Below are positions 1,461 through 27,496 of a DNA stretch of 64,000 nucleotides, piece by piece. The stretch is from Apostichopus japonicus. Taxonomy: Eukaryota; Echinodermata; Holothuroidea; Aspidochirotida; Stichopodidae. The stretch's first letter is position 1. Each line of letters opens with the position of its first letter. The stretch lies in the NCBI RefSeq assembly GCF_037975245.1, contig NC_092582.1, positions 5,558,001 through 5,622,000 on the forward strand. Direction: 5' to 3'. Position numbers and translations under genes: made by a program. The notes beneath the pieces were generated by a model, which saw only the letters and a program-made list of their open reading frames with translations, was not told the origin of the DNA and did not search any database.

Positions 1461-2717
1461 AGTGCAACATGTCAACACCAGTTCCGTACCTTGAAGCACA
1501 TGTATGAATTATTACAATCGCCAGACTTACAGTATACAGAAAACTAAAATGTGTGGATGAATACAGTACTACAGTATAAAGTAGGGTCAATTTATCCTTG
1601 CATAGTGACTTTTGACTTGAGGTCTCAAGAGGTATGTACAAATCTATATCATTCTGGCGGAATCTGATCAAATTTCATTGAAATCACAGACTGGATCCAA
1701 AATACACAACCAAAGAGCAAATCAGAGAAATTGCCATTACTGCTAACCTTTAAAAGTATCTAGTCCAGCTTAAGAAGTTCTATTTTTGACTAATGAAATT
1801 TGAAAATACTACTACTGTACTGTAGAAGCAGCCTGATGAAACTGCATGTATGCAATTCCTACACATTCTGTACCATAACTGTGAAACTGAAGGAACAGGT
1901 GTGATGTCATAGTTGCACATTTACAGCATAATGTTCTGGTTTTTTTTTTTTTCAAACTTTGTTTCGATCTTGAATTGGATAGGGTTCCAACTTTTCTTCA
2001 TGGGGTTTGAAGTAACCTACTGTATGACTGTGGTGTAATTGTTAATGCATCTCAATTTTGGAGAAGAAACTTTGGATAAACACTTCAAGGAAGAATGTAG
2101 AACAGATTTGTCCGGGTGCATGAAATGACACCCATATCTAATTCACTTTTGCTACAAAACATGTCAACTTCAAATGTTATCTTGACAAAGATACAGGTAG
2201 AATTAAATGCAAATTTCATTACAGTAGGATGCTTCTACAGTTCTAGAATGTCGCTCTTTCATCAACCCCCAAAAAGCTCTTGGCATAGCAAAATTATGGT
2301 ATGCCATCATACAGCACTTTTATTCACTTATACACAGATACAGTAACAGCTCAGTATTATATGAGAGATGGAATCCACAAACCTCAAAAAACTAAGATCT
2401 ACACCTACTATTACTGTAGAAGTGAAATATTCCATGCTAGCCCGATGACACCATTTGCCACCTGTTTGATAAGTCCTAGTAATGACAATCTTAATGAGCT
2501 CAACAGCAATTAATACCAATATCATCACGATTTACACTTAATATCCTATTCCATCCTATCTAGACTTGTGAGTTGTAATTAAGCTTTACTTTAAAAATGA
2601 CTAGGACCAAGCACAGTTGGTCAAATTATCATAGGTCTACATATTAACCATAGGTTTACATACTGTACCTACCATTTTCCAAGAGTCAATTTATTTAAAA
2701 TGTACTGTAAGACTTAC
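1461..2717. other. intronic or intergenic sequence, no gene seen
   Basis: Low-complexity AT-rich sequence with T-runs. Short open frames here have no splice signals or composition that I can support as coding. Confidence 0.4.
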
Positions 2718-2833
2718 CCTCAATGGTTTATTTACTGATGGAGGTCCCATCGTGCTGGTTTGTGGTGGGCTTGGTGAAGTTGGTGACTGGTCTAGGCTAC
2801 TGACAACTGTATTTGTACTTTCGTGCAACTTTT
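2718..2833 (-). CDS. internal coding exon of an unrecognised gene
   Basis: On the minus strand the exon lies between a CTTGCAG acceptor and a consensus GTAAGT donor. It is 116 bases: two completing bases plus 38 codons, with no stop in the chosen frame. The product is rich in Ser, Thr and Pro (KLHESTNTVVSSLDQSPTSP, then PPQTSTMGPPSV), so it is probably a disordered linker. Its 5' phase (needs one base) matches the phase-1 end of the exon at 4206-4326, giving Glu across the junction. I do not recognise the gene. It may be a separate gene or a 3' continuation of the giant gene upstream; the phases of the latter do not join directly. Confidence 0.6.
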
Positions 2834-3689
2834 CTGCAAGTTTAATTGAACAAGTGTTGTCTCAATGTCCTTAAAGAAATATGACGATGAGAAGCTATAA
2901 ATAACTAGCCTATCTGTTGTTACTGACAAGAGTGATTGTGAGCTTTCAAGGGGTAGCTACATTAGCTGATATTGACAATGCTACTTGAATTTGAAATATC
3001 ACTATAGTACAGTGTAGGCTACACAATACAGCTATACATAGTACAGTAGCCTAATTGAACTTTTATCATTTCCGCTACATTCAATGAACAGAAGCGAGAA
3101 CTATATTGTTTCCGAAAAATAGCATTAATCCTGAACGAAACTATGTAACCTTTAAGATGATTATGAAACAATATCCAATCTCAAACACACAAACCATGAG
3201 AGGTGACAGATTATGCTCAGCGACGCATGCAGCTGGTAGTAGTTGTAATATGGCACATGTGGACGCGGTAGTATCCAACTTTTACAACTGTTATTGTCGT
3301 TACCTTCATGAAGCACCTACAAATCAGTTCCGCAATTCGTTACACTGTACGGCTTATACCTCGTTCTAAGGGAGTCGGGATATGGTGGTCTGTTTATATG
3401 CCTATAGCATTGCAACCTGCACCGATTGGAGTAAAATTGTCTGTGACATATCAAAAGTAATGTGTTTTGGCCTGCCGTCAGCTTTAAAAATAAGGCAGAG
3501 ATCGGTGGATAGGGTCTGATCGGAGGCAGGGTCAGGCACGCATCAGGCAGATTGTGGTACACAATTTTGAGAAATGCACTCGCTAATGTTATTAAACTGT
3601 ATGATAAAATGGGATGACGATTTAGAAAGGTAACCTTTTAACCTCTCCAGTTCCCCCGCCTCCTCCCCACATATAGTCCTATTAACCAA

Positions 3690-3770
3690 CGCCACGGTCT
3701 GGGGAGGGGTATGGCCGTCTGGGAGGGGTATAGGGCGGTCTGGGGAAGGGAAGAGCGGTCTGTGAGATGT
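3690..3770. repeat. minisatellite, GGTCTGGGGAGGGGTAT type
   Basis: Three to four imperfect copies of a 17-20 bp G-rich unit. Confidence 0.6.
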
Positions 3771-8172: not shown

Positions 8173-11100
8173 CTACTTCTTTAAATCTCTCTCGGGTTTC
8201 TGGTAGCCGGAATAGGCTGTGTATTTTTTATTTTTTGTAGAATGTTCACTCGACGAATCGTAAGCACGATAACCTGTAAGCAAAGTCGTAGATTTGGATT
8301 CAATAACCCCTGACATAGACAGGTCTTGTTTAACCTTGCCCTTTTCACGTATTATGGAAGTGGCAACAGGGCCTTTGGAAGAAGAAGAATCTCCGACACC
8401 GATCGCACCTGAAACGTCGTATTGATCACAAACTGAGCTCCCATCGGAGTCGGTCGTCATTTCATCACCGTTTTCTGCCAATGACCTCTTTTTCAGTAGG
8501 TATCCACTTCCTTGAGAAGCTGTCTTTCGAACTCTCAAGATGGACTTAAGATGATCTGCATCATTTTCAGAGTCCCCGGTGTCGATGTCCCCTTCCACTC
8601 CACCTTTTAGTCCTGCATCATCTCTTCCTAGTGGGGATCCGCCATAAAGCTCATTCAGTCTTGTAGTGATACCCTTGGATGATCGGCTTTCAAGTTCCAA
8701 CATCTTCTTGGAAACGGGGATGGGTTCAGACCGCCTTGTTGAAGTCTTTGTCGACGAGTAAGAATATTCCCTTTTACCTTCCGTTTCTTTCTTTCGCAAG
8801 TCCTCCTGGTCGGCGAACCTGACCTGACCTGCTTTTCCATTTCTATTCGTTCCTTTTCCTCTTCCACTCAGATATCCCGTTCTTGTTTCTTTATTTGCAG
8901 TATCATGTAATAATGATTGCATCGGTCCCCTAGTTTGTCCAAACAATGATGGTAGAACAGCTGTACCTCTGGACCAAGTAGAGTGGTGGTAGCCTGTGCT
9001 CATAGTAGGACTAACGTTACTTGTTGTAAGAATAGCTGTCGTGTACGTTGCACTCGGGGTAGATGCTTGTAGAATCATCACTTGGCATCGTGGAGGAAGC
9101 TTCTGTAGAATGGTAGTAGCAACATTTACCATTTGAGCAGGACTTTCGGTGCTGTTACTGTTAATGATTGATGTCTTAGATTTAGAGGTAGAACTTGAGA
9201 TGGATCCCAAACTCTCTGCCTGCTTGAGAAGGTTGTATAACTCCGCATCAAGTCTAGCGGTTTCAGCGTCAGATTTTCGCGATACTTTCGTGTTTCTTAT
9301 TAATTTGACTGGCTCTTCTTTAATTGAATTAAGTTTTCTTGTATGGTGGTCACTACTTGAGGATCGAAACTGATGATTCATAGACTGCACTTCCTGATGG
9401 TCTTGACCATGAACGTAATCGGTGAGATTTCGTTCGATCTGTGATAAGGAGGTTTGTTTTTGTACATTGCTGCCGGCAACGGATTTCTGCGCCAAAAGTT
9501 GAGAACTTACTTCACTTGGAAACAGCACGGGTGAGCTAGCCGAGTCTCTCAATACTGGACCAATCTGTACATATCTGTCTGAAGTATCGACGAGGCGTTC
9601 AGGACTAGTTGAGTTGTCTTGGTAAGTGGTTCTAGATGCGAACTGAATTGGGACGTCCCTAACACGCCTGACTGTTTGGGATTCGGTTGATATTTGCTGT
9701 TGCGCAAGAGCCGAGCCTGTTGAAGCTTCCTTTGTAGCTGGTTGGAATTGCATAGAAGATGAAGTATATCCGAAATCATCAGAAGTTTGTACTTGAGCTG
9801 GCCGTCCCGGTAAGGGTGTTCGATGGGCTTGAATTCCCTGATTTCTCCTCTCTATAACCATATCAGTGCCGTGCGTTCTCGTGCTTGACGAAGATGAAGT
9901 TAGGCTATCATGAAAAACTGATTTTTCATCCCTTTGAGGAGTAGCTTGTACGGGGGTATTCGTTAATGCATTAATCACCATCGATTGCGTCCCTTCGTCG
10001 ATGTGTGATGGGATGTATACATACTGGTCTGATCGCTGTTTTCGATCAACCATTGGTAGGTCAGTTTGGAGACCAAATGTCTTGGTAGAGACGTGTAGGG
10101 CAGGACTAGTTCCGGTCTCAGACACGACAGGCTCGATCTGAATAGTAAATTCTTTAAGCATTCTCTTCTGAGTTGTGGTACCTCTCTCCATTATTGTGGG
10201 CTGAGTTTGTGATATTCTCTCAAGTGATTGTGGCTTCATTTCGGTGACTTGCACACCCTGGTCATTTGTGGGACAATCAACCTGAGTTGGGATACTTCTT
10301 ACTTTCATTTTGTGAGCAGATATTCCTTTGTCGATTACGACGGACTTTTGTGACGTCACCAAAGCAAGGTTTGCAACTTGAAGCTCATGAGTTATGTCCT
10401 CCCGCAGTTCCTTTTCTATCTCTTCCCGTAGCCGCGGCTCAAGTTCTTGCCTCACAGACTCCTTAATCTCATGTTTAATTTCTCGTTCTTTTTGGTTATA
10501 CACCTCACTCCTGTACCTCTCAATAAGCTCCTCCTTCACTTCACTCTCCAGTTTATCGGCTAATTCATTTCTAACTTCCCATGTCATTTCATTTTTGAGA
10601 TCACTTTTGACTGTGTCCTTCAATGTGTCCCTGAGGTCCCTGGTAACATATGGTTTCATTTCCTCTCGAAGGGCTTCTTCGACACTCTTCTTGATTTCAC
10701 CTCTAACCCGAAGTTTAACTTCGTCTCGTACTTCCTCAGCAATCTCGCGTTTTACTTCGTGTCGAACGTCTAAGGCTACCTCTTTCTTAATGTCACTGCG
10801 CACTTCAAAAGCAACTTCTCGTTTTACCGAGTCCCTTAATTCTTCTTTCAATTCTTTTATTACGTCATCTCTGACGTAGTCTTCTATGAGATTGCGAACA
10901 TTTGCTTCAACGTCTTTAGCAACCTGTCGTCGGACATCATCTTCAACTTCTCTAGCGACTTCCTTCCTTACGTCAATTTCAATTTCTCTCTTAACTTCAT
11001 CCTTCAATTCATGTTTCAAGTCCCTTCTGGTATTCTCCCTTAATACATGTAGTTCCTTTTCATTAAGATAACTTGGTTCAGGTGCCTCAGTGGATGAAAA

Positions 11101-14100
11101 TGGCCAAGACTCTGAATGTTGGAAGCTTCTCTCAACAGAGCGTCCCCGTAGAGGCGAGGTTACTGCGTCACGAGACTTTGGTCTTGACCTTTCCTCTTGC
11201 ACAAGCTTTTCTCTAAGAGCTTCTTCTATAAGACTCGGTAAAATTTCTGTCACGTACTCTGCTTCTACTTCCTTTCTCACTTGATTTTTCAGTTCTGTCT
11301 TCATCTCTACAATTAACTCCTTTTCCAGTTTTTCCATCGTGTTTGGTGTGATGGAACGGGTTGTTTCTGGTCGTACGTGTTTCTCAATAAGAACATCCAC
11401 TCTTCTCTCTGGGATTTCAATTTGAACTGGAACATCTTTTACCATCCTTGGTTGTGTATTCATCCCTTCACTGACGGTACGTGGCTTTATATCAGAGTAT
11501 ACCCCGACTGAAGACGTTAGAGGCATGACCTGGGCACCACTGTTAACCATCGGGGTACGCATGGTCTGCGTTGAGGACGTCGTACGTGTTGTCAAATCCA
11601 TGAAGGTGCCTGCACTAGTCAGTGCAACATCTCGACGACTATGGGACTTTCTTACGACTTCCCGCGTTATAAACTGTGTGCCCATTTCTTTTCTTATTGA
11701 ATTGTATGTAGCTGTTCCGCGACTATGTTGAACTGGATGGAATTCGAAGCTGCGCTGTCTATTGTCTTGACGAACGTCTACCATAGTATCTACACGAGAT
11801 GGTAGCTGCATAACAGTCTTTTCAGGTACCGTTTGTGTTGTAGTTACAATTGATGAAACGTTGGTTTGTGTAGTACCATCCACAACACTTATTACATTTT
11901 CCTCAATGTTATCTTTTGTGTAAGCTTCGCTGCCTTCGTTAACTTGTATTTGCAATGTTGTCGTGTGGACAGGCTGAAGAGAAATTTGAGTTGAGGCAAA
12001 AAGCGTAGGTATCGGAAGAGGAGACAAAGATCGTTGAGTCGTTGTTGTTTGTACCTGGGTAGACTTGATGTCTGCGTCTGGTGTCACCTGAGAGGAAATT
12101 TCATTTTGATATACGGTCTCGAAAGATGTTCCAATATCATTCGTCTGCACAACGGTACCTATCGAGAAGATCGAAGTCTCCGGGTTGAATTGATAACCTA
12201 TTACAGAGCTATCCGGTCTAACAATGGTCCCGGTTTCTTCTTGTGGCATCTTGAGTTCGTCAAATTGGTTATGAAAGGTACTTGAAGATTGTTGATGGAG
12301 AACACTAGCTTCTTTAATTTCCACTTCCTTCTCTACTGCAATGTACTCAATTTCCTTGAAGTCGCACGAGAACTCTTTATCCTGTGTTTCAGCATACACT
12401 TGAACCCCCGTGTCACTTTTTTCATTTTCTATGTTCACCGTCACTCCGACGTCGTTCTTTTCCACAAAAGTCTGTGCCACATGATCTGTAACATCGACTT
12501 TCTTTTCTTTCTCTGTTTGTGTTTCCTTTATGGTCAATATTAGTTCTTCAGTAGACGTCTGTTTAAACGCAACCGTCTTAGGCTCAGTTTGCACACCTCG
12601 ATCATCGGCATGTCCCTCGTATTGCGTAGTACCGTCGGTATGAGAACTAAGTTCGTACAAAGTGCTCACATCCGACGTTGACAAGACATCAGTTTGTGTT
12701 TCTGTAGTTGCTCCAAGTTTGATATCATACTGCGAAGAATTATCATTCATGGTGACCAAGGACGCAAACGACGTACCCGTCTCCGCGGTTGTTACAACGG
12801 CTGTCTGTGATTCCATCGCTCGCATGCATATTTCACTTTGTGACAGTTGACTGCACACCGAAACATCTGCTTGTGACCCAGTATCTTTCAAGTTTATCTC
12901 GTTCGTGCCGACCATCTGATCACTTAAAACTTTCTCATCGGTCTCAGTAAAGGAATGTTTCATTGACATATGGAGTGTCTGACTACTGCAATCATCTACT
13001 TCGGGTGAATGTTGTAATTCTGTATCTCGTGTGACTAAATCGACTTGCTTCGTCTCGAAGGTCTGTGAACTGTTGTCGGTAGATTCTTTGCTGATCGTGT
13101 TGACAGCATTCTCTAAAGTTAACACAGGACTTGTTTGTGATTCGGTATCATGTGATGCACTTTGATACTGCACACCTTGATTTTCTCTCGATGGAGGATC
13201 CGTCTGCCCGTTGAAGGATTGATATGACAGATCCATCCATGTAGATGAATCAACGACTTTCACTTTCTCTTCCTGATCAGTTTGAGTAAGAGATGAAAAC
13301 ATTTCTTGCTGTGCCTGAGAGGAGGCTGACTCCTTGGTCACAAGGGTGGTCTGGATCTGGGCATCACTTACAGAAAGGTCAGACGAGGTAGCTGTATCCC
13401 TCAGTTCCGGTTTATTTTCTTCAGTTTGTGTAATTGAACACAATGAATCTTTCACAGGCCGATTAGCTTGAACATAAGCATCAGTAGTTAGTACTACGAT
13501 TGGATCTAACATTTCATCTTTAACATCGATCTCATCAGTCTGTGTACTTGAACTGTTTTCTGGATGTTCAACCTGTGAGGAGCTATCTCTGATATGGACT
13601 TCGGTTTGAGTAACGTTGGACGTCGATTCTGACGTCTCGGTGTGAACAACCGCATCCACGAGATCAACTGATGTTTTTTCTACGGCCTGCGTTTCCGTGG
13701 ATGTTTCTACAAGTTCTTTTACTACTGTTTGAGAACCTTGATGCTTCTCTGAACTCTCATACTGTGAATCGTTGTCCCTAACGATAGGGGATGATTGAGT
13801 CGATGCGTTCGTTTCCGTTATCTCCGTTGACGTAGCACTAGACTTCATAATCACATCTACCTGACTTCCTTGATGAACACTATCTTTACTAATCTCTACT
13901 TGTACCCCGATATCTTGGTCATTTCGGTCATATTGGCAGGATGCTTGTTGAGATTCAACAGTTGCTTGCATTGGTACGAATTCGGCCTGAGTTTCTGTGG
14001 ATTTTTCTACAAGTTGTTTTACTAATGTTTGAGATCCTCGGTGATTCTCTGAGCTCTCATACTGTGAATTGTTGTCCCTAACGATAGGGGATGATTGAGT

Positions 14101-17100
14101 CGATGCGTTCGTTTCCGTAATCCCCGTTGACGTAGCACTAGATTTCATAATAACATCTACCTGACTTCCTTCATGAACACTCTTTACATTTATCCCTACT
14201 TGTATCCCGATATCTTGGTCGTTTCGGTCATATTGGCAGGATGCTTGTTGAGAGTGAACAGTTGCTTGTATTGGTGTACTATGATTTTCTACGTTATCTG
14301 TTTCGGTTCCTACATTTCTGAAATTCGCTGTTGTCTGCACACTTTGGTTTTGACTAGTACCTTCATCCACCTCAGTCGAGATGTCTTTCGTTTGTAATGG
14401 GATCGTTTGGATGACAGTTTCTCTAACCTCATGATTGATTGGTGATGAGCTTCGGTCGGTCAGATCAACAGTTGCTGTTTGCGAACTTTCCACTTTGACA
14501 GGACTTAGTATAGTCTGAGTGGCGTCGTTTTCAAATTCTTGACAGTCAGTTCCAATACCAATATCAACCTGTTCCAGGTTATCTTTAAGCAATGCCATAT
14601 CCTCAAATTCTTTTAGACGTTCTTTGAGTTCTTTCATACGTTCTTGCATTTGTCTGTATTCGTTCATTTCTATCTTGATCTGTTCGAACTCTTCCATTGA
14701 GAAAACCAACACTGGATGAGTTTGACAATCAATGTCAATTCCACTGTCAGTGTCACTTTCGTCATCAGAAACGTAACATTCAGTACCTAAAGTATTCATC
14801 TCTGGTTTTGCCATTGAACCCTCGTTTTTGTAGGTTGGTACTTCTGGGGCTACCTGGCATTCTCTGTCAGATGAAAACAACTGCATATGTTGGGAGAATT
14901 CAGACATTTCTTGAACACTTTGAATACTCTCTTCGACCATCGATGGTACGAAACTTCCAGAAAAATGATTCTGTTCTATTTCAGAAGTTTGTGTGGGGAA
15001 ATCCGAAGTTTCTGGTACAGCAATTGATCCTCGAGAAACATAGTCAATCAGCGTTTGCACGTGCTTTGATTCCATATCCCCCATCACAGTTTCAGTAAAA
15101 ACTGAAGCAGTGTCTGGTGATGCAACCGTTGATATTTCGTGTGTGTTAACATCTCCGATCTGTTGGGCAAATAGAGCTGTTGAAACTACTTTTTCATCAT
15201 AATCGTCAAATTCCGAGATGTATACTTCAGTCTCCTGATCGGAAAATTTAGCAACGTCAGTGAATGTCCACGTTTCAAACGTGTCTTGGGTTGCCTGAAC
15301 TTCTTGCTCAACTTGTTGCTCTTCATGACTAGCCTCTGATCTTTGTTCAACTTCAGCCACAATTGTGACTTCTTGAACTTCCTCCAAGGGGTCCGCCATC
15401 ACGGATGAGTCATAAGTACATATTTCAGTTTGTGATGATTGAGTAACACAGTCAGACGAAATCTGCACGCCTTGCTGTTTTACGTTTCTTTGAATATCAG
15501 TCATGAGACTTACGTTCGTCGTTCCTACTTGTGTTTGCTGGAACCCATCCGCCATGCTTCTTGTTACCTCCACGGACACATCTTTTACATCATGCTTACA
15601 CTGGGTTGACTTTGATTCCACCTGAAAAGGTATAGTTGTGATCCCAATGGAGCTATATTGTGGCGTAGTCTGTATTGCTGTTGACGTAACCTCCATAGAT
15701 TGTTCTTGGGCAGTCACGTGAGTGTCAACCATTTCTGGCGCGCATGTAATTCCGACTGATGGCATTTGGAAGAAGATGGCATCATTCCCTGTATCCGTTG
15801 TACTTTGACAAGCAGATGTTCCAACATCTGTTGTTCTTGCAATGACTTGCACTCCGCTCTCAGACACTGAAAGTACTGTTTCACTTGATTTGTCTAGATA
15901 TCTGATTGAAACCTGGCTCGAGGCGTTACGTACTTCAACAAAATCGTCTTCCTTACTAATGACGTCATCTCCGATGCCCGCATCTACTGTTTCGACGTCA
16001 ACTTGGACAGACGTTGTAAGCATCGAATCGAGATGTCTTTGCCTTTGCCTGCGTTGCTGTCTTATTATTGATTCTTCAGTTTCTTCTTGAACCCCGTTTA
16101 TAATGACGTCCCACGTCCACTCCGGCTGTGTTCCCGTGTCAATGAGTGATGGGCCTTCTGGACCTTTCAGCGTTAAAACACCTAACGATTTGGGGACATC
16201 TTCCAAATCAACAAGTTTAGACTGGAGTTGACGAATTGTTTTTCGATATTCATTTTCAAACTCTTCTCTCAAGTCCGTAATGATATCAGACCACTTTTCA
16301 TCTGACTGGGTAAAGTTATCGTCCTTTTCCTTTTCCTTCTCAGTCGATTTTAATTTTATCACACCCATGCTTGTTGGTTTCTCAGACTTCCTAGTCCTGC
16401 GGTAAGACTCTATCGCAGACGTCTCAATCTCTTCAGTAATATTCTTCCATGAGAATGCTGGATCTGTCCCAGTGTCATGTTTCTTCACGCGCGGCTTCTC
16501 CTCTTGCTTTAACTTAAACACACCTGCAACCGGAACTCGCTGTATAGTATCTTGCTGTTTCCTCTGACTTTTGTAGCTTTCCACTGCATCTTCCTGTACT
16601 TCATTAATAAACAAACGCCAGTCAAGAACGGGACTTGTCGCAGCGTCGGATGTCGTAATCTTTGGTGTTTCCACTTGTGTCTTTTTCAACTTAAATACAC
16701 TAACGACTGGTGCTTCTCGTGGCTGATCAAGTCCATGTGCTCTGATATACTCGTCAATGGCCGCACCTTCAATCTCCCGTACTAGTCGATCCCATTCTAT
16801 CTCAGGTTCTGTGGCATCTTCCCACTGCACTCTCCTTGGTCGGTCACGAACCCATGTGCGCAACGTGGAAACAGCAACACTCGTTTTATCATTGTCTGTT
16901 TGAGTTCCTTGCATGTGAGAAGGCGTTGCGAAATTAGCTGTCGTAGCTTTCGAAGTCATGTTGCTCAGTGTTTTCAAACGGAGTATTTCTTCCGTTTCCT
17001 CCTGAATGACACTGACAATTTCAGTCCAACTCCATTTTGGTTGGATACCCCTGCTTGTGGTTTGCTTTCGATTAGCAATTGTGGTTTGCTCTTGAATGAT

Positions 17101-20100
17101 ATCCACCAACTGATGCCACGAGAGGTCAGGTTCTGTAGATCGTTCAACACTTGAGTGTCTTTGTTTCCGTCTCCAAAAGTCTCCAGATTCTTCATGTATT
17201 GTTTCTACAAGATGTCTCCATGTGATTATTGGATCGGTACCCATCTCTGACGATATTTCCGTCTGTCGTCGAATTAACATTTTACGAGCTTCGTCGGTCA
17301 CTATGTCGATCAATTGTGCCCAACTCAAATCTGGTTGTGTTCCTGTGTCCCGTCTTCTCACACGTTCCTCCGACTTAGATCTTAATTGAACAATTCCCAA
17401 GCTCTTTGCCCTGTCAATCAACATTTCTCGATCGTAAGAGATGCTTCTTTGATATTTGGATCTTTCCTTGTTTGTAAGATTGATCTCTTCCATCACTATA
17501 TCGATAAGATCCGAAAAGGATAGATCTGTTTCTGTCCCAGTACTTCTCACAGGGGCCTTGGTGTCTTTCTTTTCCTTGAGCGAAAACACGCCGATGTTCT
17601 GAGGTGAAATCTCTTCACGTAGATCAGGTACCGACTTACTTTTCATATTTCTTTCAGCTTCCAGTGTGGCAATATCAACAAACTCACCCCAACTAAGATC
17701 CGGAGAGGTTCCCATATGCGCTACAGTCTTTTGTGGCTTTTTCTCTGCTTTTAGAGAAAACTTTCCAACGAGAGGAACTGATCGTTTTTTGTAACGTTGT
17801 TCCTTTGTTACCCTCTCCTCTATTCGTGCCTCCATTAACCGCAAGAGCGTATCCCAAGACACGTCAGATTGTGTGCCCATGTCGACTACACCATGATATA
17901 ATTCTCGGTCGGATTTCGAACGTCTGACTGGAGATCGGCCACGCCTACCATCTTCTGTTCTTATTCTCATTCGAACGTTTTGAATTAGAGTCTCCCAAGA
18001 CACTTCGGGTTCTGTAAACTTATCCTTCACTGAGATCCTTTCATCACCGGAGCGAGTTGCATGCCCCGGAGACACGCTCCGAGATCTGCGGTTTCTTTCT
18101 GTCTTACTTTGAGACCTTCGTTTGTCTGAGTAAGTTGATGATAAACCACGACTTTGAGCAGAGGATGATCGATATATATGAACCATTTCTCTTTCTGGCT
18201 CCGAAAAGTATCTATCGTCGGGACTTTCAGCTCCACCTTGCAATTCGTAAGATAAACCATCCCAGGAGAGGTCATCTCTGTCATGCAGAGATCTCTTTGT
18301 AGGTTTATTCTTTGAAGTTTCTTTCTTATTTTTTCTGTAGCTCGTTAGCCGTGACAATGTCGATTTCTTTTTGCCACTCTTTGACTTTCTTTCCGCAAGC
18401 ATGTCACTAGTCAATTTTTCTTCCAGTTCTTCTAGTAGACTTCTCCATGAAATCCTTGGCTCGGTGGTAGCCACCCTCAGTTTTGGCCCACTGCATTGGG
18501 TTGAAGCATTAACCATACTTAAAAACATCTCCCTTTTATTTGCAGATTTTGTATAAGTATGTTGTGATCTGTCGTTATCGCGCTGAGATATCTCTGTGGA
18601 TGCGGATCGTATCGTCGGTGAACGGCTTTCGCGTAACCGAGGCCAACCAGCTGTTGATGAGGTACTGGTTTCTACTGAATTCTGCAGAGAATGTGGACTA
18701 GGTGAAACAAGTCGAACTACGCCAATTGTTGGGACGTCTTCATGGCTAGCACTTGTAGCCGAAGTCTCAATTTCCTTTCCTGATGGCGTAGTAGACCTGG
18801 ACCGAAGCTGATGCTCTCGTGTCCTGCTGGCGCTTGATAAATGCTTCTGGTGAAGTTCCTGTAAAAGGAGAAGGAATAGTGAAATTTTGTGAACATAAAC
18901 AAGTAACAATACATAATGCTTGTAGTATTATTATTATTATTATTATTGTTAATAACAAATGCGCGGATTTGATTAAGAAGCGTTGCTGGACCGACAAGTA
19001 TTGTCGATAATGGTTATTTCAAAATATTTAAATAACACGTTTGTGCGTTTTCCTGGTTTAAGTTTAATTTCCGTATACCACAAGATATTTTCATGTGTTC
19101 TGTCTGTCAACAGGAACAAAGGGCACGATCTGGTAGGAATAAGAAATTACTCAGAGCGAGACTTTTGCGGTAACATGAAAAGACATTAGAAGAATTCCTA
19201 TATATTCGACCAAAGAAAATTATTTCATTTCTTTATCTTCCAGACGTGCTACATTACAAGATGTATAAATTACTAATCCCCAGGCTGGTACTATACGTCT
19301 TCTTGAACATTGCGAGTCTATCTGAGTTAACTAGAGGGAGGAAAAGCGGTCACGGATGGGATGACCAGTAAATTATAGTAAACATGAACATAATAGATAG
19401 AAACGGAAATTCGTTTGCTCATAGATAAATATGTTTGCCCGATGTTTACCTGTGATTCACTATTTATCCTCTCGGAATATTTTATAGGTGATTCGGACCT
19501 TGATCGCTGCAATCGTTTCTTCTGGTACCTATCTTTTGTTCTTCCCCTGACGCCTGATGAAACTCGTGCAATTGGCTCCTCCTGGATTGCATCAACGAGA
19601 TGTATAACTCCTGAAAAATAAATACGTACAAATCAATCATTTTATCTTCAAATATCAATATTGGATGATGAGGTTTTGAGCACAATGCACAGAATTTAGC
19701 AGAGAGCGAGAGAAAGAGAATTATTCCGGGTTATGTGGGCTATAGTTCTGGCGGAAAGGTGTGGAAGTCAAAGGCGTAGGAACCGGGGGGCTGGGGGCGG
19801 CAGCCCCCAGTGAAAAATGTGGAGGGGCGGAAGTATCATTCCGCCCCCCGCTTCGCAAGTCAGAAAACCCCTTTTTCATTTCCAAATGAGAAAAAAATCT
19901 CATTTGGAGCACCAAATTGCATCTAAGGCCTGGTGAAAATACAAAATTAAGTTTACAAAATGGAGTGGGTGTTGAAGTGTGCTATATTGCACCAAATTGC
20001 ATCTGAGGCTACCTGGAAATGCAAAAAATTCCAAAGGGGAGGGGGACACCCCCTCCCCTTAGATCCCTCCCCCAGGCCGGCCATCAGTCTTCAGCCCCCC

Positions 20101-21705
20101 CTCCCCCACTCAAAAGTACCTTCCTACGCCACTGGTGGAAGTACGTTCATAAACGGCACTTTCCATCCGCTGGTATGCAATATTAAAACTTATGACCTTA
20201 CATTGCTAAGCATAGCTGACAGTTAAAAAGAAAAGTGTTATCAACTCACCTATAGTTGGAATACTATTTGTATCTGAGGCACTCTCTATGGGATCCCGGA
20301 ATGACACTCTCGTTCTTGGGTCCAGAGTAGTTTCTGAAAATGATCTTGGAAGAGTTGTACTGGACCTACTGACATATCTCGTACTTTTTGATCGTGCCTG
20401 GTCTCCCCGTCCTGTCTTGAATTTTGTTGGTTGTTCAGCACGGACAAGGGTAATAAACTCCTTCCCATTTACAACTTCACGTTTGGCCACATGATAGTCG
20501 TGGCCATTATGATGTCTTACATCGTTGTTTCCTGACTTTGCAAACCTTGAAGGAGACTTCCTTCCATCTCCAAGAGTCTTTGCCTTTTCCGCCCCAGAGG
20601 CGTTCATGGCAACAGATCCGGTTATCCCATCACTACGTTTTTCGATTGCTTGACGTCTGAGCATTTCTCTTTGATCCATAGTAGCGGTTCGGTGACTCTG
20701 ACCGTCATTTTGTGATACGTGTCCATGAACTGTTTTGTCTAACCGTCTATCAATGTCTCCATAATCATAAAGATCTTCGTCACTGCTCTCTGATCGACGA
20801 GTACTTGCGATTGAAAAGTTTTCATCTATCTCGATTCTAGTATCACGCGATGCCAACGGTCGATCCGGTTCAATTTCAACGGCGATGTCATCTACAACCC
20901 CTCCACCACCGTGCGAGCGCCGATACCTATCGCCACGCTCGTCGTATCTGTTTTGGGATTGTCTGCTCGTGGTGCCAACGTGCGACGTTGTCCTGTAAGT
21001 GCGAGTGGATGATGACTTCTTCGTGTCTGACTGACGATCGCCCTCCACAACAACTCCTACTATAATGTCTTGAGTATCTGGTACCAATTTAATTTCGCTC
21101 GACTTGTAACGAGCTGAGGTAAAGTTGATGGCGTCTAACTTGGGCAGAGATAATGGAAAAGCTTTCTCAAGGACATCATAATCGTCTGGGATATTCAAAT
21201 CATCTGACGACAGCTTCCAATTTATTTGGTAGGTTTCCTTCAAAGGGTTAAAGTCATTGGCCACGTCAATCACTGAATTACTCCTAGATGCACCATCACT
21301 AGTATCGAATAATGACGGTGTATCAAGAGAATCGCTGATGGTGAACACAGAGCCTCTTCCGGAATCACTACTTGGCCTCCCTTTGACGCTGTCATCCTCG
21401 GACTGGTCTTTGTCTGCTTTAGCTTCAATGTCAACAGCAGTAGAAGGAGAATAAACAACAGCCGGCTCATTATTATTACGCTTGATTCGCTTTTTCTTCC
21501 ATTTTTGGTATGCTAAGTAGGCAACAAGTTCAAATAGAAGCGTACCAACGAGGACGGCGCAGCATGCGCCGATCAGGATACCGACACTGACCCCACCTTC
21601 GGGGAACACGCAAGTCGACTGTGCCGATACAGGAGGTGCCAGAGTAAGAAGTAATGTAGAACAGACGATCAACAACGGATTGTTGTAATGGTTAAATCCA
21701 CCCAT
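8173..21705 (-). CDS. giant single-pass membrane protein with LC8-type TQT arrays (about 4,100 aa)
   Basis: Three coding exons join in phase: 21705-20250, 19610-19450 and 18858-8173. Donor GTGAGT at 20249, acceptor TTTTTCAG before 19610, donor GTAAAC at 19449, acceptor CTTTTACAG before 18858. A TTTTTCCAG acceptor ends at 21834, so a 5' UTR exon lies upstream, and the first ATG in frame gives MGGFNHYNN. Residues 1-28 look like a signal peptide, 29-38 are a tiny ectodomain with one Cys, and 39-66 are a membrane segment followed by a basic stop-transfer (KWKKKRIKR). The cytoplasmic part has about 15 SWxxLV modules (residues about 670-1460), many TQT/SQT motifs (about 1600-3030), a short coiled coil (about 1925-1970) and an octad-repeat charged helix (about 3135-3365). 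Exon 3 alone is 10.7 kb. The reading ends at TAG 8173-8175; a GTAGGT donor overlaps the stop, so further exons are possible. I do not recognise the family. A scaffold role is inference. Confidence 0.85.
10390..11075 (-). repeat. protein-level octad repeat: long charged helix
   Basis: About 28 consecutive units of 8 residues follow a pattern with hydrophobic V/I/L at positions 2 and 6 and Lys/Arg and Glu/Asp between them. Examples are EVAREVED, DVRRQVAK, EVAFEVRS, DVRHEVKR and EIAEEVRD. No proline interrupts most of it. The strict 4+4 spacing differs from the heptad of a normal coiled coil. The opposite strand stays open over the same bases because of the repeat. Confidence 0.85.
11400..15620 (-). 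repeat. protein-level array of TQT/SQT motifs (LC8-like linear motifs)
   Basis: This stretch of exon 3 encodes a Ser/Thr/Gln/Val-rich disordered region with more than 30 occurrences of [STVI]QT followed by polar or acidic residues. Examples are SSSTQTDEID, NVTQTEVHI, SLTQTDQEE, TETQTDVLS, GVQTEPKT and KETQTEKEK. TQT preceded by a short beta-forming stretch is the core anchor motif for dynein light chain LC8 (DYNLL), which binds such motifs as a dimer. The family knowledge is established; binding by this protein is inferred. Confidence 0.8.
13690..14290 (-). repeat. 300-bp in-frame tandem duplication inside exon 3
   Basis: Two copies of a 100-residue unit lie exactly 300 bp apart. For example CATACTGTGAAT plus the following GTTGTCCCTAACGATAGGGG occurs near 13760 and again near 14060. 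Both copies encode SQQASCQYDRNDQDIG, SQVDVIMKSSATST and TNASTQSSPIVRDN. High nucleotide identity indicates a recent duplication. Confidence 0.9.
16090..18470 (-). repeat. protein-level repeat array: SWxxLV modules alternating with GVxxLK motifs
   Basis: Inside exon 3 about 15 modules of 40-60 residues share a core of acidic/Pro, a hydrophobic residue, S/T-W, two residues, [LI][IV], then an acidic helix. Examples are PDLSWAQLIDIVTDEA, PDLSWHQLVDIIQEQ and PEWTWDVIINGVQEE. Most are preceded by GTxxD or TEP. Between modules a second motif recurs, such as PVAGVFKLKQEEK, NIGVFSLKEKK and SMGVIKLKSTEK; exon 2 already holds TIGVIHLV. The array is a built-in tandem architecture, presumably a helical binding module. 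I know of no family with it. Confidence 0.8.
18925..18952. repeat. ATT trinucleotide microsatellite
   Basis: About eight uninterrupted ATT units in the intron before the large exon. Confidence 0.9.
19769..20134. mobile_element. non-autonomous hAT-type MITE, copy 1
   Basis: The 366-bp element starts CAAAGGCGTAGGAA and ends TTCCTACGCCACTG, giving imperfect terminal inverted repeats of the hAT kind. It is flanked by a perfect 8-bp direct repeat GTGGAAGT (19761-19768 and 20135-20142). It has no transposase frame. The body shares the same sequence blocks as the element at 28342-28696, in the opposite orientation. It sits in the first coding intron of the giant gene. Confidence 0.85.
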
Positions 21706-21834
21706 CTTATAACATACGTTATTAAGAATTACGCAATGGTTGGTACGGGTCTCTGGAAAGAAATACAAAGGAAAAGTTTTCACTTGTGAATATATATTCA
21801 ATATGGGTAAACATCTGGGAAAAGCAATGGACAC

Positions 21835-22393
21835 TGGAAAAAGTAGTGATTAGTGATGTTAAAGTGTTGTAGAAAAGCATATAAAGCAGGCTAATGCACT
21901 TTTAAGGAATTTTAAGAACGAATTAAGTTTGCCAACCTGCCTCACATCATACACTGTCATAGCATGACGGCTTGGATGGCGTCGGCTTTACAATGTTATT
22001 AGCTATTTTGTGTTTCATGTTGATCGAGTCACGGCTACTCAGTCAGTGACTACATGCCACATACTCATCTTTGGAGAGACTTTATTTTGTTCTTTCAAAC
22101 ATTTGGAATGTTTGTAGAACTTACATCTTAACTAATCATTGGAAGCAAAGGCAGTGGTATATCTAAAGGAAATGTATTGCCATGAACGGAAGACATTTCC
22201 TATGCATATCATCCATCATAAACAAGATCAATGTTTCTTCGTGTATTCCAATATCACCACTCCGTAGATGCACATGTGTTCTTTAAGCATCCTGCTTGAA
22301 ACAGAGTTTGAAAGTATGAAACAGAGTTTAGTTGCCTACTTCTTATACACAAAAAAGAAGGAAGAAAAAGTAATAATAGCCCAAGGGCACTAT
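21835..22393. promoter_or_regulatory. upstream region of the giant gene (minus strand)
   Basis: The intron before the first coding exon and probably the promoter and 5' UTR exon lie here or beyond. I could not place the transcription start, and no TATA box is convincing. Confidence 0.2.
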
Positions 22394-23936
22394 GGTTCCT
22401 TGCTTATAAGGACTAAGCACTATCCTAAAATTGTTATTTCCGGGTTTAATGTACGCACACAATATTATTGCCATAAATATCACAAATCAATGATTGGTCC
22501 TTTTGAGAATCTGTTGATCTTTGTTATATCAGTTTATAATAACTTGCAGAATCATCCTAACTGTACTTAATAACTTTGGTTGCACAGGAGTCAACCCATG
22601 GACAATTAAAATATGGCCACAAAAATTCAAATATTCAACTTAAAGAAAAACTAATACAGGTCACTGGAGGCGCTATACAAAGGTCTTGTGAGGTCTGCAG
22701 AGGTACAACTCTCAAAACCAAACAAAGCCTTGACCTCTGATAACTTTGTGCATGAAGGTCGCACAGGGATCAACCATGTTTGGAGATTGAGTTTTTGACC
22801 CATAATTGACCTTTGTTGACCTTGGATCATATGACCGTTATGTTTGGAAACGATTGTTTACCCTATTCACAACTAGTCCAAAAATGTCAACAATGTCGGA
22901 CCCCATCAGTGAGAGTTTCACAAGTTATTGCCAAAAAAAAAACATTTAACCCATTATTGACCTTGGATTACATAACGGTTATTTTGGAACATGTGCCCCT
23001 ATTTCATTCACAACTGGTCCCAATATATCAGCCATTTTAGACTTCGTCATTGGAAACTGTTGCAAAAATTAGCATAAGTGGGCAGACTTTTGCCCATAAG
23101 CAACCTTGAATGAACTTGGATGACATGACGGTCTTTATGAAAAATGTTCCCCTCGATGATGTGCACTCCATAGTATTATTGCTATGCACTCTAATGAACA
23201 CACACAATGTTATTGCTAAAAAGGTATCAAATCCAACTTTTGGCACCTCATAACTTAAGAACCAGGTGTCCGATCGAAGCGGGAGTTAGTTTCGTCTATA
23301 GCGCGCACAGAGCTCTATCAAATATTAAAATACTGACAAACTTTTTTTCTTTGCCCTGTATCTCCTAAAATGAGCAAATTTATATAAAAAAAACCTTAAC
23401 CTCTGATAACTTTGCACCCGAAGGTCGCACAGGGGTCAACCCATTGACAATTTTGATCGGAAGACCATTTGAGATCTGAATATGGCCACAAAAATTCAAA
23501 TAACCAAATAAACTAATATAGGTCACCAGAGGTCAACCTAAGGTCAAAGGTCACAAAGTTGCTGGTCGACTTATGGATTACAATAGCGTAACTCCCAACC
23601 TTGATGGACATTTTGTTCTCAAGTTATCGCAAAAATACTAGTTTTTCACCCCTAATTGACCATTGTTGACCTTGGATCACACAACTGTTGTATTTTAAAA
23701 CGATCCCTTCCCCATTTCCAACTAGTTCCAAAATAACAAACGTGTCCTAACTGACCTTTAGTGACCTTAACAGGCACCGAAAACAATAGGGCACACCTTC
23801 TCACTATGGCGGATCTAAATACCAAGTTTGAGTTAAGTTCAACTTTTCCTTGTTAAGTTAGAGTGTACCCAAGCAAATGTTACACACACACACGCTAAGT
23901 TGAGTACATAGGTTCCTTTTGCTAAAGCAAGGAACC
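22394..23936. repeat. 1.5-kb repeat with 12-bp inverted ends and diverged internal copies
   Basis: The span begins GGTTCCTTGCTT and ends with its exact complement AAGCAAGGAACC. Inside, a unit around 'GACCTCTGATAACTTTG ... GGTCGCACAGGG' occurs near 22728 and 23395. A second unit around 'TTGACCTTGGAT' occurs near 22817, 22960, 23110 and 23668. No transposase is visible. No clear target duplication was found, so the boundaries are approximate. Confidence 0.5.
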
Positions 23937-24563
23937 AAAAAAGACAAACTTAGTTGGTCCTGCCACGCATATTATATAATTCCTACATCATCTGCCTAAT
24001 TTTTACTCTTGTATTGCTCCTTTTGTATACTTAACATTTTTATACTCGCACCAATTAATTGTAAATGGAATACCTGGCAGACTAACGTGTTTATACAATG
24101 CACGCGAAAAATTACAAACTTGGTTGATTACTCCGTTACGAATACATAATTCAATATCTACTTTTGTCAAGTGCAACAATACCATGACGTCATGCGAAAT
24201 CGTGGGTTCATCACTCATTGTTCCCTTCAAAGAGGCCCCATTGTCCAAAATTCCAAAGAAATGGTACTAAAGTCAGAGGTCATGGCAACTCAATTTCCAT
24301 GTCTGGACAATTTTCTGCAGTCTGAATATATTTCTAAATCTTGCAATATTTTTAATGCCAAGAGGTATTTGCTGTCTACAGTGGCACAATGGTTCAATAA
24401 GCTTACCTTATACGGTACAAGCTTCTTTTTTTTGCACATGATGTAATACATCTATAGGAGTATTTCTCTACGTAATTCCTACTCATGATCATGATTTTGA
24501 CTTCTTCAGGTAAGCGTCAGATAGGGTCTAACTAGGCCCTTAATTTTGTGATTAAATAAACAA

Positions 24564-24841
24564 AGTGGCTATTCTTACAACTATTCGTAAGAATAATTTC
24601 CGACTACGCATGCGCAGTTGCTATTTTTATGACCAGGAGTACTATTTTTACGACGAGTAACAAAAATTTCCGGTTAGGGTTAGGGTTAGAGTTAGGATTG
24701 AGGTTTAGGGTTATGTTTAGGGTTAGGGTTACCCCTACTACATGCGCAGTTGCTTTATTTACTCTACTGCGCTTGAATTCGCCTTTGTTGTAAGAATAGT
24801 TTATAAATAATTGTTACAACTAGTCGTAAGAATAGCCACGG
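24564..24841. mobile_element. inverted-repeat MITE with internal telomere-like GGTTAG array
   Basis: The ends are inverted: GTGGCTATTCTTACAACTA at the left and the complement of GTGGCTATTCTTACGACTA at the right. Between them, 24672-24733 is a degenerate TTAGGG-type array. There is no coding capacity, and no clear target duplication was seen. Confidence 0.7.
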
Positions 24842-25209
24842 CCTTAAATAAATGTGAGGTTAAAATATGTTCACTGAACTGATTCAACTGATCGACAAAT
24901 ACTGTGAATCTCAAAACAAAGTGCTGTGACAAGAAGAATAGTTTTGATGAAATTGTGTTGTGAACGCACTTTTATACAGAAAGTGTGCGATCCAATAAAA
25001 TATTTGTTGACACACCAATGCAGAATAATGTCGTCAATGTCCACGGCATAAATACAACAAAGCATTTATGACACTTGATGGAAGCTAAATTGTTAGTGGA
25101 ACAATATGACGGGTTCTTTATGCTGTACAATAGAATCACAGCTCTGTCCCACGCTACGTCAATGTTGTATGTATTGGGTGGATGTGAATATGAGAAGTGG
25201 AGTTGACAT

Positions 25210-26965
25210 ACATGGACCATCCCCCCCCCCCCTCCTCTCCAACCCCATCCTCCGTCAATAACGGTTCACTGCTTCCTTTACACTATTTCCATGATGAAAT
25301 CGTCAATAACTATCCAAATCCTATAGCAAGATGAAATCCGATTGGGTCAAATTTACACTGATGGGTTACAACAATTTTATCGAGTTGTTTCTGTGGTTTC
25401 ATCGAGTGAGCCAGTTACCGGACCGGTCATTTGTCCGACTCATGTGCATGGAATCAGTTAGTCACAGAGTTGTACCTCGGGGATAGGGGTATAGGAGTAA
25501 AGCTACGAAATTATAGTAACCTTCTAACTGTACATTCAAAAGATTTTGTTACTCGATTTAATAATTCTTATACTGCATATACTAGAGATATGGAGCCACA
25601 ATGCGCTATCAGTTTACTTCAGACTTCCTATAAACTAATGTTTCGAGATATCCTTCAATCTATATGTTATACAGTATAGTCCACACACACTACCGTTAAA
25701 AACTCGATAACAAGCAAATCACTTTTTTTCTTTCTTCGGAAAAATATTTCTATACTTACAGATTCGGTCTTCTTTTCAATAGCAATTTCGATGACATGTA
25801 ATGCACAAAATTTCCTTTTATTTCTTGTAGTTTTAAGTCTGTTTTACCAGTTTTCATGTTACACTCCCGCATTGATGTTCACCACCATCTACGACCAGTC
25901 ATCTTTATGCTTATTAAAATAGGCCTCTACTTAGATCTATATAAGAACAAGAATGTTTGACGTGGGAAGGTCACATACCAGCCTTATAAAGGAGATAACA
26001 CGCAATGTGATTGGTGAGAAAACTTGGTAAATAAAGTGGTCGGCTGTCTTGAGAAAACCCTCACCTTGTTATCATGCCTTTGTTGTAGAGGTGACAAGTT
26101 CGGAGAGAACACCCAAAGTAGCTGGTGTGACACTGAAATCAGGAAACAGCTAGTACTCAGTCGGTTTATTGTAAAATTTATGGTTAACCAACGTGCCAGT
26201 CGAAACTGGCCAATTTCCAATTCGGAAAGAGTTGTAAAGTAGTGTCGAATGTTTGTTAATTTATGTACATGTAATTAAGCATGATCGTACACTGGTTCAA
26301 GGACAGATTGCATGTTGGTGATCTGCATGCCGGTCAGAAACAATTATTGTAAATAATAAGAATCTGGATGCTAATCCAAACAAAGTAGGATGCAAGCTGC
26401 AATTATCCTTGTCTTGTTTAAGGAGCATATAGGCGTAGTAGCCCAATTTGATTTGGGGGGGGGGGGGGGGAGGCTGTAACGTCTTGCCCGAAAAATATTA
26501 CCAAAATTGTTCGCGCTCCGCGCGCGTTCAACATGTCACTGTACATATCATATTGGCTTTTACATTAGTAATGGCGAATAAGTCGGGCAAGCTCAGGACT
26601 TTATTTTAATTACCAAGGAGAATTTTTTAAGCTATTTATTTCTTTTAGCTACATCATGGCAATTAATTTTTCTTTCAGTAGGTGCCCGAAAATTTTGCCA
26701 GAATTTTCACAAAATATTTGGTTGGGGTTGCAGCCCCTCCCCCTCCCCCTCCCCCCCCCCCTCACCCCGCCTATATTTAGTAGTAAACATATTGTAAACC
26801 TTTCAGGAAGTAGCAGCGTGGAATTGACGGTATAACATATTCTATGGTTTTCCCCTTTCTTCATATGTACGCCCTTCTTTCCACTTACCGGTCATTGTTG
26901 AGCCACAGATGTGACTACTATAGTGTTACAATGCAGTATGTTAGTCCTATACGTCCTACACGTCT
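25210..26965. other. no supported gene
   Basis: Sequence with poly-C near 25220, poly-G near 26455 and C-rich tracts near 26740. One possible minus-strand exon near 25758-25830 ends in a consensus GTAAGT donor and reads KFCALHVIEIAIEKKTES, but a second frame is also open and no partner exon was found. Confidence 0.3.
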
Positions 26966-27496
26966 ATGGCAAGCCATGTGGGACAAACACCGCATAATAT
27001 ATCCGCGTATTAATTGAATATATACGCGTATTAATTCGAATATAATATGTGTTGTACATGTGTAAAGTTTCGCTTTATGAAGCGATCTCGCGAGCCCGCC
27101 AAAACATTTATCGTTGGTATATGTATACAGCAAGAGCGGAAATGTTTTTTTCGTGTATATTCTAATTAATCCGTGCATATATTGGATTTAATCCCCATAT
27201 GTATTTTATTTAATACGTGTATATATTCGAATTAATACGTGTATATATTCGAATTAATACGTGTATATATTCGAATTAATACGTGTATATATTCTAATTA
27301 ATACGTGTATATATTCGAATTAATACGTGTATATATTCGAATTAATACGTGTATATATTCGAATTAATACGCGTATATTTTTAAGCCATATGATTGGATA
27401 ATAATATATACGCGTATATATTCCAATTAATACGCGTATAAATTCCAATTAATACGCGGATATATTATGCAGTGTTTGTCCCACATGGCTTGCCAT
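26966..27496. mobile_element. AT-rich MITE with TGGCAAGCC ends and a 22-bp tandem core
   Basis: The left end ATGGCAAGCCATGTGGGACA is matched by an inverted copy at the right end, with inversion continuing for about 60 bp (CGCATAATATATCCGCGTAT). The core (about 27211-27375) is some eight copies of a 22-bp unit containing TACGTGTATATATTCG. The flanks carry ACACGTCT and ACACGTCC, a probable 8-bp target duplication with one mismatch. There is no coding capacity. Confidence 0.8.

What the first reader, a model, noticed from the sequence alone, without database searches (positions are those of the whole stretch)
8173..21705. A 4,100-residue membrane-anchored protein with dozens of LC8-type TQT motifs
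Three exons join in phase into one protein with signal peptide, membrane segment and a disordered tail carrying more than 30 [STVI]QT motifs. TQT is the established anchor motif for dynein light chain LC8. Known LC8 scaffolds such as Nup159 or ASCIZ carry roughly 5-11 sites. An array this long, tethered to a membrane, would act as a polymerising LC8 dock or dynein/myosin V adaptor. I know of no described protein with this layout.
Basis: partly seen in the sequence, partly recalled or inferred. Interest (0 to 1): 0.8.

Follow-up and report, generated by a model that had tools for sequence, protein, structure and literature searches.

The report
Giant membrane-tethered LC8-motif ladder (candidate)
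An echinoderm gene encodes a roughly 4,100-residue, apparently membrane-anchored protein whose tail repeats a motif resembling the dynein light chain LC8 docking site about every 11 to 13 residues, which could let it be zipped into a very long rod; no binding has been tested.

Summary
The gene is as described: three exons (21705-20250, 19610-19450, 18858-8173, minus strand) join in phase into 4,100 residues with 31 [STVI]QT sites against 8.9 in shuffles.

In ten-fold cross-validation there are 70 hits (shuffled 15.0), 34 neighbouring pairs 11-13 apart (shuffled 0.4, maximum 3) and one 6-10 apart. The motif resembles the published LC8 consensus; its shortest usual spacing, 11, equals that of a verified LC8 pair in Drosophila ASCIZ; the genome encodes a near-identical LC8.

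Best reading (0.47): LC8 dimers zip two parallel tails into a long membrane-anchored assembly. A dynein/myosin V adaptor is less likely. Against it: 65 of 142 chained units lack the central Q; 3-residue linkers gave off-register complexes in ASCIZ; no binding was measured; no second species could be searched. A single-sequence AlphaFold model showed no fold (mean pLDDT 34), weak evidence. If most sites bind, this would exceed the 11 verified sites of ASCIZ several-fold.

The parts
20250..21705 (-). Exon 1: start codon, hydrophobic N-terminus, short ectodomain, membrane segment, basic juxtamembrane stretch; aa 1-485 and one base
21622..21705 (-). Putative signal peptide aa 1-28 (hydropathy and inspection; no predictor run)
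21508..21582 (-). Putative membrane segment aa 42-66, followed by QKWKKKRIKR
19450..19610 (-). Exon 2, aa 486-539, AG/GT bounded, in phase; no Pfam match
8173..18858 (-). Exon 3, aa 540-4100 and stop
16036..18477 (-). Module region aa 667-1480: 14 copies of xGTxPxxSWxxLxxxxxEE, a helix with a near-invariant Trp; seven GV[FI]xLK-like elements lie in this region and two upstream of it
   Evidence: alignment A1; positions; helix modelled for one module with pLDDT about 79-94
11413..16017 (-). Main LC8-motif-like grid aa 1487-3021: 102 units in the chained alignment (an upper figure), 60 with Q at the anchor, 36 with [TVIS]Q[TVI]; usual spacing 11-13
13681..14280 (-). Recent 100-aa tandem duplication of nine units (aa 2066-2165 / 2166-2265), Ks 0.19, Ka 0.11
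10351..11025 (-). Charged helix candidate aa 3151-3375 with a hydrophobic residue at every fourth position (96%)
9457..10332 (-). Second stretch of the grid aa 3382-3673 (21 units in the chain, 13 with Q, 6 with [TVIS]Q[TVI])

Best explanation
A gene that is single-copy at our search sensitivity in an echinoderm genome encodes what looks like a type I membrane protein with a tiny ectodomain and a ~4,000-residue cytoplasmic tail. About 1,800 residues of the tail carry an old 11-13-residue repeat whose core resembles the LC8 recognition motif. Inferred mechanism: two chains lie in parallel (perhaps helped by the membrane anchor, the lone ectodomain cysteine and the long charged helix), and LC8 dimers bind matching sites on both chains at successive positions, zipping them into a long, partly stiff assembly. 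If the whole main grid were extended it would span about 0.5 micrometre (1,535 residues at 0.34 nm; arithmetic, not measured). Strong QT/QV units would nucleate; weaker and Q-less units would stay flexible or bind by avidity. The Trp-helix modules nearer the membrane would bind another, unknown partner. Shown: gene model by sequence, motif, spacing, saturation of silent sites, presence of LC8. Inferred: topology, binding, duplex, rod, function.
For: A motif found without LC8 input matches the LC8 columns in order (rank 3 of 5,040 column orders; flanks alone 1 of 24). The grid holds under ten-fold cross-validation (70 hits versus 15.0; 34 pairs at 11-13 versus 0.4) and when sites are chosen only with the published-peptide matrix (56 sites at 2 bits or more; 18 pairs at 11-13 versus 5.3 under jitter, 0 of 2,000) or the [TVIS]Q[TVI] pattern (48 sites; 9 versus 2.9, P 0.001). 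Pairs closer than 11 are rare; dASCIZ sites QT2 (274-285) and QT3 (285-296) are 11 apart (PMC5963919 passages) and solved two-site complexes have 3-9 residue linkers (PMC12797016 passages), against 3-5 here for an 8-residue core. Units share protein cores but not silent bases (fourfold third-base identity over all pairs 0.27, random 0.29), so the cores look selected. LC8 is present: best genome copy matches DYNLL2 with E 2.6e-54, identical over the last ~37 residues. Charge-hydropathy puts the main grid on the disordered side.
Against: 65 of 142 chained units lack Q at the anchor (S 19, E 13, G 8, T 7, rest fewer). In the column comparison the similarity sum itself is slightly negative (-0.83 bits): only the order is favourable, an average unit is not a good LC8 site. 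G/S at -2 and P at +3 are as informative as some anchor columns, which LC8 does not demand; K/R at -3 is weak; hydrophobics at +2, disfavoured by LC8, occur in 19% of 11-residue but 38% of 12-residue units (background 27%). Linkers of 3 residues gave off-register, heterogeneous complexes in ASCIZ, 6 and 9 gave homogeneous ones (PMC10046861 passages), which argues against a perfect rod at pitch 11. The published-peptide matrix passes 8 or 9 of 28 non-binders. Spacing is not significant for [TVIS]QT alone (29 sites; 2 pairs versus 0.6, P 0.13) and is weak with a 5-residue blind motif (19% at 11-12, shuffled maximum 18%). A two-way split with a lightly regularised matrix found far fewer grid pairs (7 of 26 and 6 of 23 spacings). 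Adjacent units agree a little more at silent sites (0.34, n = 62). Anchor conservation in the recent duplication is not significant (2/27 versus 16/73 changed, P 0.08). Aa 3376-3700 falls slightly on the ordered side of the charge-hydropathy line. No binding, expression or second species.
Confidence: 0.47

Rival explanations
1. The 11-13-residue repeat is an intrinsic beta structure (solenoid or strand-turn repeat) or a docking array for a different partner; the LC8 resemblance of the Q-bearing units is incidental or secondary.
For: Q is not invariant while G/S at -2 and D at -4 persist. In 11-residue units residues at -1, +1, +3 and +5 lean hydrophobic, as in a beta strand. A similar GTQ/GTxP core precedes the Trp helices.
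Against: Single-sequence AlphaFold2 of 17 units gave mean pLDDT 34 and only isolated short strands (weak, no alignment). Best PDB sequence match E 0.2. The order of preferred residues fits LC8.
Confidence: 0.3
2. A mostly disordered tail in which perhaps 15-45 canonical sites bind LC8 more or less independently, with the regular grid being an old repeat relic and no rod.
For: Only 15 sites score 8 bits or more and 43 chained units have a canonical anchor. Short and long linkers give heterogeneous complexes in ASCIZ (PMC10046861 passages).
Against: Silent sites are randomised while cores and 11-13 spacing persist, which a relic would not be expected to do.
Confidence: 0.18
3. TRAF-type or other receptor-tail motif array.
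For: PxQx[TS] occurs 5 times versus 1.3 in shuffles (motif recalled).
Against: [PSAT]x[QE]E (recalled) is not enriched (11 versus 12.5), while the LC8-like [DSNE]x[GSA][TVIS]Q[TVI] pattern is (15 versus 1.1).
Confidence: 0.03

Closest known systems
ASCIZ/ATMIN (human 11 verified LC8 sites and 16 predicted, Drosophila 7; PMC10046861 and PMC5963919 passages)
   Same: Disordered tail with many QT-type LC8 sites of mixed strength; one Drosophila pair is 11 residues apart
   Different: ASCIZ is a zinc-finger transcription factor; here no Pfam domain above threshold and no C2H2 pattern, a membrane segment, and several times more candidate sites on a more regular grid
Nup159-Dyn2 (yeast nucleoporin, 5 sites, stiff beads-on-a-string; PMC12017986 passages)
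   Same: Consecutive LC8 sites stiffened into a rod, the mechanism proposed here
   Different: Five verified sites; nuclear pore protein with FG repeats; here only three FG pairs
Kir4.1 channel with LC8 (PMC11999606, start of abstract in search listings only)
   Same: Membrane protein reported to carry LC8
   Different: An ion channel copurifying with LC8, not a giant repeat tail
Bassoon, 53BP1, GKAP, Chica, Panx, Pac11, RSP3 (multivalent LC8 clients named in a PMC10046861 figure legend)
   Same: More than one LC8 site in a chain
   Different: Fewer sites than ASCIZ where the passages I saw give a number; not membrane-anchored repeat giants as far as I know (recalled)

Membership tests
Multivalent LC8 clients | Several motif-level LC8 anchors above chance | tested here: met
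   [STVI]QT 31 versus 8.9; 15 versus 1.5 at 8 bits; 48 [TVIS]Q[TVI] in aa 1481-3700 outside the second duplicate copy
Multivalent LC8 clients | Sites lie in disordered sequence | tested here: inconclusive
   Charge-hydropathy: main grid disordered side, 3376-3700 slightly ordered side; AF2 pLDDT 34 without alignment
Multivalent LC8 clients | Site spacing that lets neighbouring LC8 dimers bind (11 or more residues; 3-9 residue linkers in solved pairs) | tested here: met
   searches compared; note the off-register caveat for 3-residue linkers
Multivalent LC8 clients | LC8 present in the same organism with intact groove sequence | tested here: met
Multivalent LC8 clients | Direct LC8 binding measured | not testable with these tools
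   needs ITC, pulldown or native MS
ASCIZ/ATMIN | N-terminal C2H2 zinc fingers | tested here: not met
   no Pfam match above threshold in any of the three exons; no C2H2 pattern in the joined protein
Nup159 | FG repeats (and an N-terminal propeller, recalled) | tested here: not met
   three FG pairs in 4,100 residues; no Pfam domain above threshold; membrane segment instead
Beta-solenoid proteins | Confident solenoid fold | tested here: inconclusive
   AF2 single sequence, mean pLDDT 34, short isolated strands only

The most novel reading that the evidence does not exclude
The protein is a membrane-anchored molecular zipper: scores of LC8 dimers bind in register to two parallel ~4,000-residue tails at an evolved 11-13-residue pitch, making a rod of up to about half a micrometre with several-fold to about tenfold more sites than the 11 verified in ASCIZ.
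Probability: 0.3. Interest if true: 0.87.

Novelty: new variant of a known kind. Interest (0 to 1): 0.65.

Why it matters
LC8 is usually discussed as a hub that dimerises clients with one to eleven verified sites. A tail with a conserved motif pitch over some 1,800 residues would suggest that LC8 can serve as the main building block of a long cytoplasmic filament attached to a membrane, and would give a natural system to test how motif spacing, weak sites and in-register binding control LC8 assemblies. The spacing rule also offers a way to look for LC8 ladders that simple TQT scanning misses.

Tried and rejected
Pfam scan of all three exons: nothing above threshold. Paralog search in the genome with three stretches (P0002, a 147-aa Trp-module stretch, a 156-aa grid stretch): only this gene, plus one chance-level hit on C9, E 2.1. 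PDB sequence search of a grid stretch (best E 0.2) and of the Trp modules (best E 0.03 over 17 residues): nothing convincing. AlphaFold of the grid from a pseudo-alignment was dropped because MAFFT aligned overlapping fragments by identity or inserted long gaps; a single sequence was used instead. Simple residue autocorrelation is only modest (lag 11, z 4.3), so I relied on the motif grid. The in-sample count of 142 units is biased upward because the matrix was trained on the same sequence and the chain rewards 11-13 spacing (50 shuffles gave mean 18.6, maximum 33, with that same matrix); one search is the fairer figure. A lightly regularised two-way split was much weaker. Motif discovery on three other parts of the protein gave 8/37, 5/30 and 7/23 spacings at 11-13, so dense packing alone yields some; the grid had 60 of 96. 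Motif width mattered: the excess at 11-12 is clear for widths 8 and 6 and marginal for 5. TRAF and AKAP ideas were checked by recalled patterns only, in the grid region. The dynein/myosin V adaptor idea was judged from literature, not tested.

Rows left out: the binder matrix used 16 published ITC-positive human peptides (11 of 12 positive rows of Table 1 of PMC6607443, the twelfth being a second MUC4 row; 5 of 7 of Table 2, two viral left out) plus 4 peptides quoted in papers (Bmf, gephyrin and two consensus peptides); weak binders were not used. Of 43 non-binder rows 28 were used; 15 were left out by my choice (poor or no anchor, PLK1 and ILK among them, second versions, and viral or phage rows). 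One search used 18 of those 20 binders. The second copy of the 100-aa duplication was left out (spacing tests; silent-site test; training and test) and 85, and of the training, but not of the counts; a stretch offset by about ten residues was left out instead.

Full report
What is there. On the minus strand three exons, 21705-20250, 19610-19450 and 18858-8173, have GT/AG borders and compatible phases and give 4,100 residues. The exon 1/2 join creates PTIGVIHLV, echoed by PTIGVVRLV inside exon 3, which supports that splice; the exon 2/3 join rests on splice signals and phase alone. The window lies on contig C22 of a 671.6 Mb, 35-contig assembly. Its 16,099-base contig C35 is mitochondrial: in COX1 the best-matching PDB chain (7o37, mouse as I recall) has Asn at sites such as STNHKDIG where this genome has AAA, and Ile at sites read as Met by code 5, which has 22 ATA codons.

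Layout. N-terminal hydrophobic stretch, a very short ectodomain with one cysteine, a membrane segment at about 42-66 followed by basic residues (hydropathy only); fourteen Trp-helix modules between 667 and 1480 and nine GV[FI]xL-like elements, one module modelled with a helix at pLDDT about 79-94, whole-model mean 72; the QT-rich region 1487-3021; a charged stretch 3151-3375 with a hydrophobic residue at every fourth position (96%, other phases 7-11%); more QT-rich sequence to about 3690; a C-terminal tail.

Motif counts. [STVI]QT 31 versus 8.9 +/- 2.7; TQT 12 versus 2.4 (500 shuffles). An 8-mer matrix built from published peptides (PMC6607443 Tables 1 and 2; its Results were read in full and one Methods section; consensus and Bmf peptides from PMC3078936, abstract, first part of Results and passages; gephyrin from PMC12057147, abstract and two sections) scores 15 sites at 8 bits or more, shuffles 1.5; 17 of 20 binders pass in leave-one-out, but so do 8 or 9 of 28 non-binders. 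The matrix is mine, not LC8Pred, whose values I could not obtain.

Hidden repeat. Expectation-maximisation with no LC8 input found D/S-x-G/S-[TSV]-Q-[TV]-[DE]-[PLV] in aa 1486-3690 without the charged stretch and most of the duplicated copy. With width 8, 60 of 96 neighbouring spacings are 11-13 and none is 8-10 (shorter is excluded by construction); 11 or 12 make up 53% versus a mean of 10% and maximum of 15% in 20 shuffles. With width 6 it is 40% versus a maximum of 14%; with width 5 only 19% versus a maximum of 18%. With a 5-bit cut over the whole protein, pair distances are 0 at 6-10, 26, 19 and 9 at 11, 12 and 13, 2 at 14, 0 at 15-16, then peaks at 22-24 and 33-37. Ten-fold cross-validation, each block scored only by a matrix trained on the others: at 4 bits 70 hits (100 shuffles: mean 15.0, maximum 23), 34 consecutive pairs at 11-13 (0.4, maximum 3), one at 6-10 (0.7). 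A harsher two-way split with a lightly regularised matrix keeps the signal but weakly: 28 hits versus 9.3 with 7 of 26 spacings at 11-13, and 24 versus 7.3 with 6 of 23 and three at 6-10. Sites picked only by the published-peptide matrix also fall on the grid: 18 pairs at 11-13 versus 5.3 +/- 2.1 under jitter, none of 2,000 reaching it. By pattern: [TVIS]Q[TVI] P 0.001, [GSA][TVIS]Q P 0.004, Q[TV] P 0.008, [TVIS]QT P 0.13. Residue autocorrelation peaks at lag 11, z 4.3. A chained alignment lists 142 units, 77 with Q and 43 with [TVIS]Q[TVI]; this is trained on the same sequence, counts the duplicated copy and rewards the spacing, so it is an upper figure.

Age and selection. Between units, fourfold-degenerate third bases agree no more than chance over all pairs (0.27 versus 0.29, 3,930 comparisons) and slightly more between adjacent units (0.34, 62 comparisons), so most of the shared amino acids are not recent copying. 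The one recent event, a 100-residue tandem duplication, has Ks 0.19 and Ka 0.11; anchors changed at 2 of 27 and other positions at 16 of 73, P 0.08, suggestive only. The gene is single copy at the sensitivity of three searches.

Why LC8. The blind motif agrees with the published natural consensus [D/S]-4 K-3 X-2 [T/V/I]-1 Q0 [T/V]+1 [D/E]+2 and with the small -2 residue of the phage-selected one (PMC3078936), except at -3. Among all 5,040 orders of the seven shared columns the true one ranks third, and flanks alone rank 1 of 24; yet the similarity sum is slightly negative (-0.83), so an average unit is not a good LC8 site by that matrix. Of the position rules in PMC6607443, the lack of hydrophobics at -4 is kept (8% and 6% in 11- and 12-residue units, background 27%), that at +2 only in 11-residue units (19% versus 38%). 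Spacing fits: dASCIZ QT2 274-285 and QT3 285-296 (PMC5963919 passages) are 11 apart; solved two-site complexes have 3-9 residue linkers (PMC12797016 passages). LC8 in this genome: four full-length family members and one partial, the best matching DYNLL2 with E 2.6e-54.

What argues against. Almost half the chained units lack Q. Eight have SP at positions 0/+1 (GTSP, ATSP and the like); from memory Pak1 binds LC8 through a similar TSP site, but the paper I opened (PMC2698211, passages) gives only its residue range, so this stays recalled. G/S at -2 and P at +3 are stronger than LC8 needs. In ASCIZ a 3-residue linker led to off-register and heterogeneous complexes at high LC8, while 6 and 9 residues gave homogeneous ones (PMC10046861 passages); most linkers here are 3-5, so a perfect rod is doubtful. 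AlphaFold2 on 17 units without an alignment gave pLDDT 34 and scattered strands: no support for a solenoid, but weak evidence either way. Alternating hydrophobics in 11-residue units keep a beta structure possible. PxQx[TS] is mildly enriched (5 versus 1.3).

Mechanism. Reviewed work says LC8 binds two client chains in register and that as many as eleven sites have been found, in ASCIZ (PMC12017986 passages); sixteen are predicted there (PMC10046861 passages). From this I infer that two parallel tails would be zipped by LC8 into an assembly tethered to the membrane. Help from the ectodomain cysteine and the charged helix is speculation. A dynein or myosin V adaptor role is not favoured by that literature.

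Novelty. Eight searches of the open PMC library (all hits listed except 10 of 32 and 10 of 12) showed in their listings no protein of this layout. Subscription papers and preprints are not held, and no eukaryote protein database could be searched, so it may already be annotated as an uncharacterised protein and homologs may exist. I file it as a new variant of a known kind, not as a proven LC8 client.

Noticed in passing
10351-11025 (aa 3151-3375, minus strand): A run of about 55 tetrads such as KREI-EIDV-RKEV-AREV with a hydrophobic residue at every fourth position in 96% of cases; a period of 4.0 is not that of an ordinary heptad coiled coil.
   Followed up: partly
16036-18477 (aa 667-1480, minus strand): Fourteen modules xGTxPxxSWxxLxxxxxEE whose start resembles the grid core and which continue into a Trp-bearing helix; seven GV[FI]xLK-like elements lie among them and two upstream. 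Partner unknown.
   Followed up: partly
21508-21621: Predicted mature ectodomain of about 13 residues with a single Cys, and a Glu inside the membrane segment; from memory this recalls dimeric signalling chains such as CD3 zeta.
   Followed up: no
units with Q0 at aa 924, 1281, 2011, 2818, 3107, 3457, 3624, 3648 (window 8173-18858): Eight grid units have Ser-Pro at positions 0/+1 instead of Gln-Thr; possible proline-directed phosphosites or Pak1-like LC8 sites (recalled).
   Followed up: partly
39753-40190, minus strand: Exon matching the anaphase-promoting complex subunit CDC26 (Pfam PF10471).
   Followed up: yes
56867-57976, minus strand: Two open frames matching consecutive parts of SPACA9, sperm acrosome-associated protein 9 (Pfam PF15120).
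   Followed up: yes
62635-63945, plus strand: 436-codon serine-rich open frame near the window end, no Pfam match; probably a large exon of another gene.
   Followed up: partly
27156-27466; 32833-32937; 34884-35346: Minisatellites with units of 22, 18 and 21/42 bases.
   Followed up: no
G000 contig C29, about 14745-31219: Several COX1 pieces with TGA codons, possibly mitochondrial DNA copies on a separate contig.
   Followed up: no
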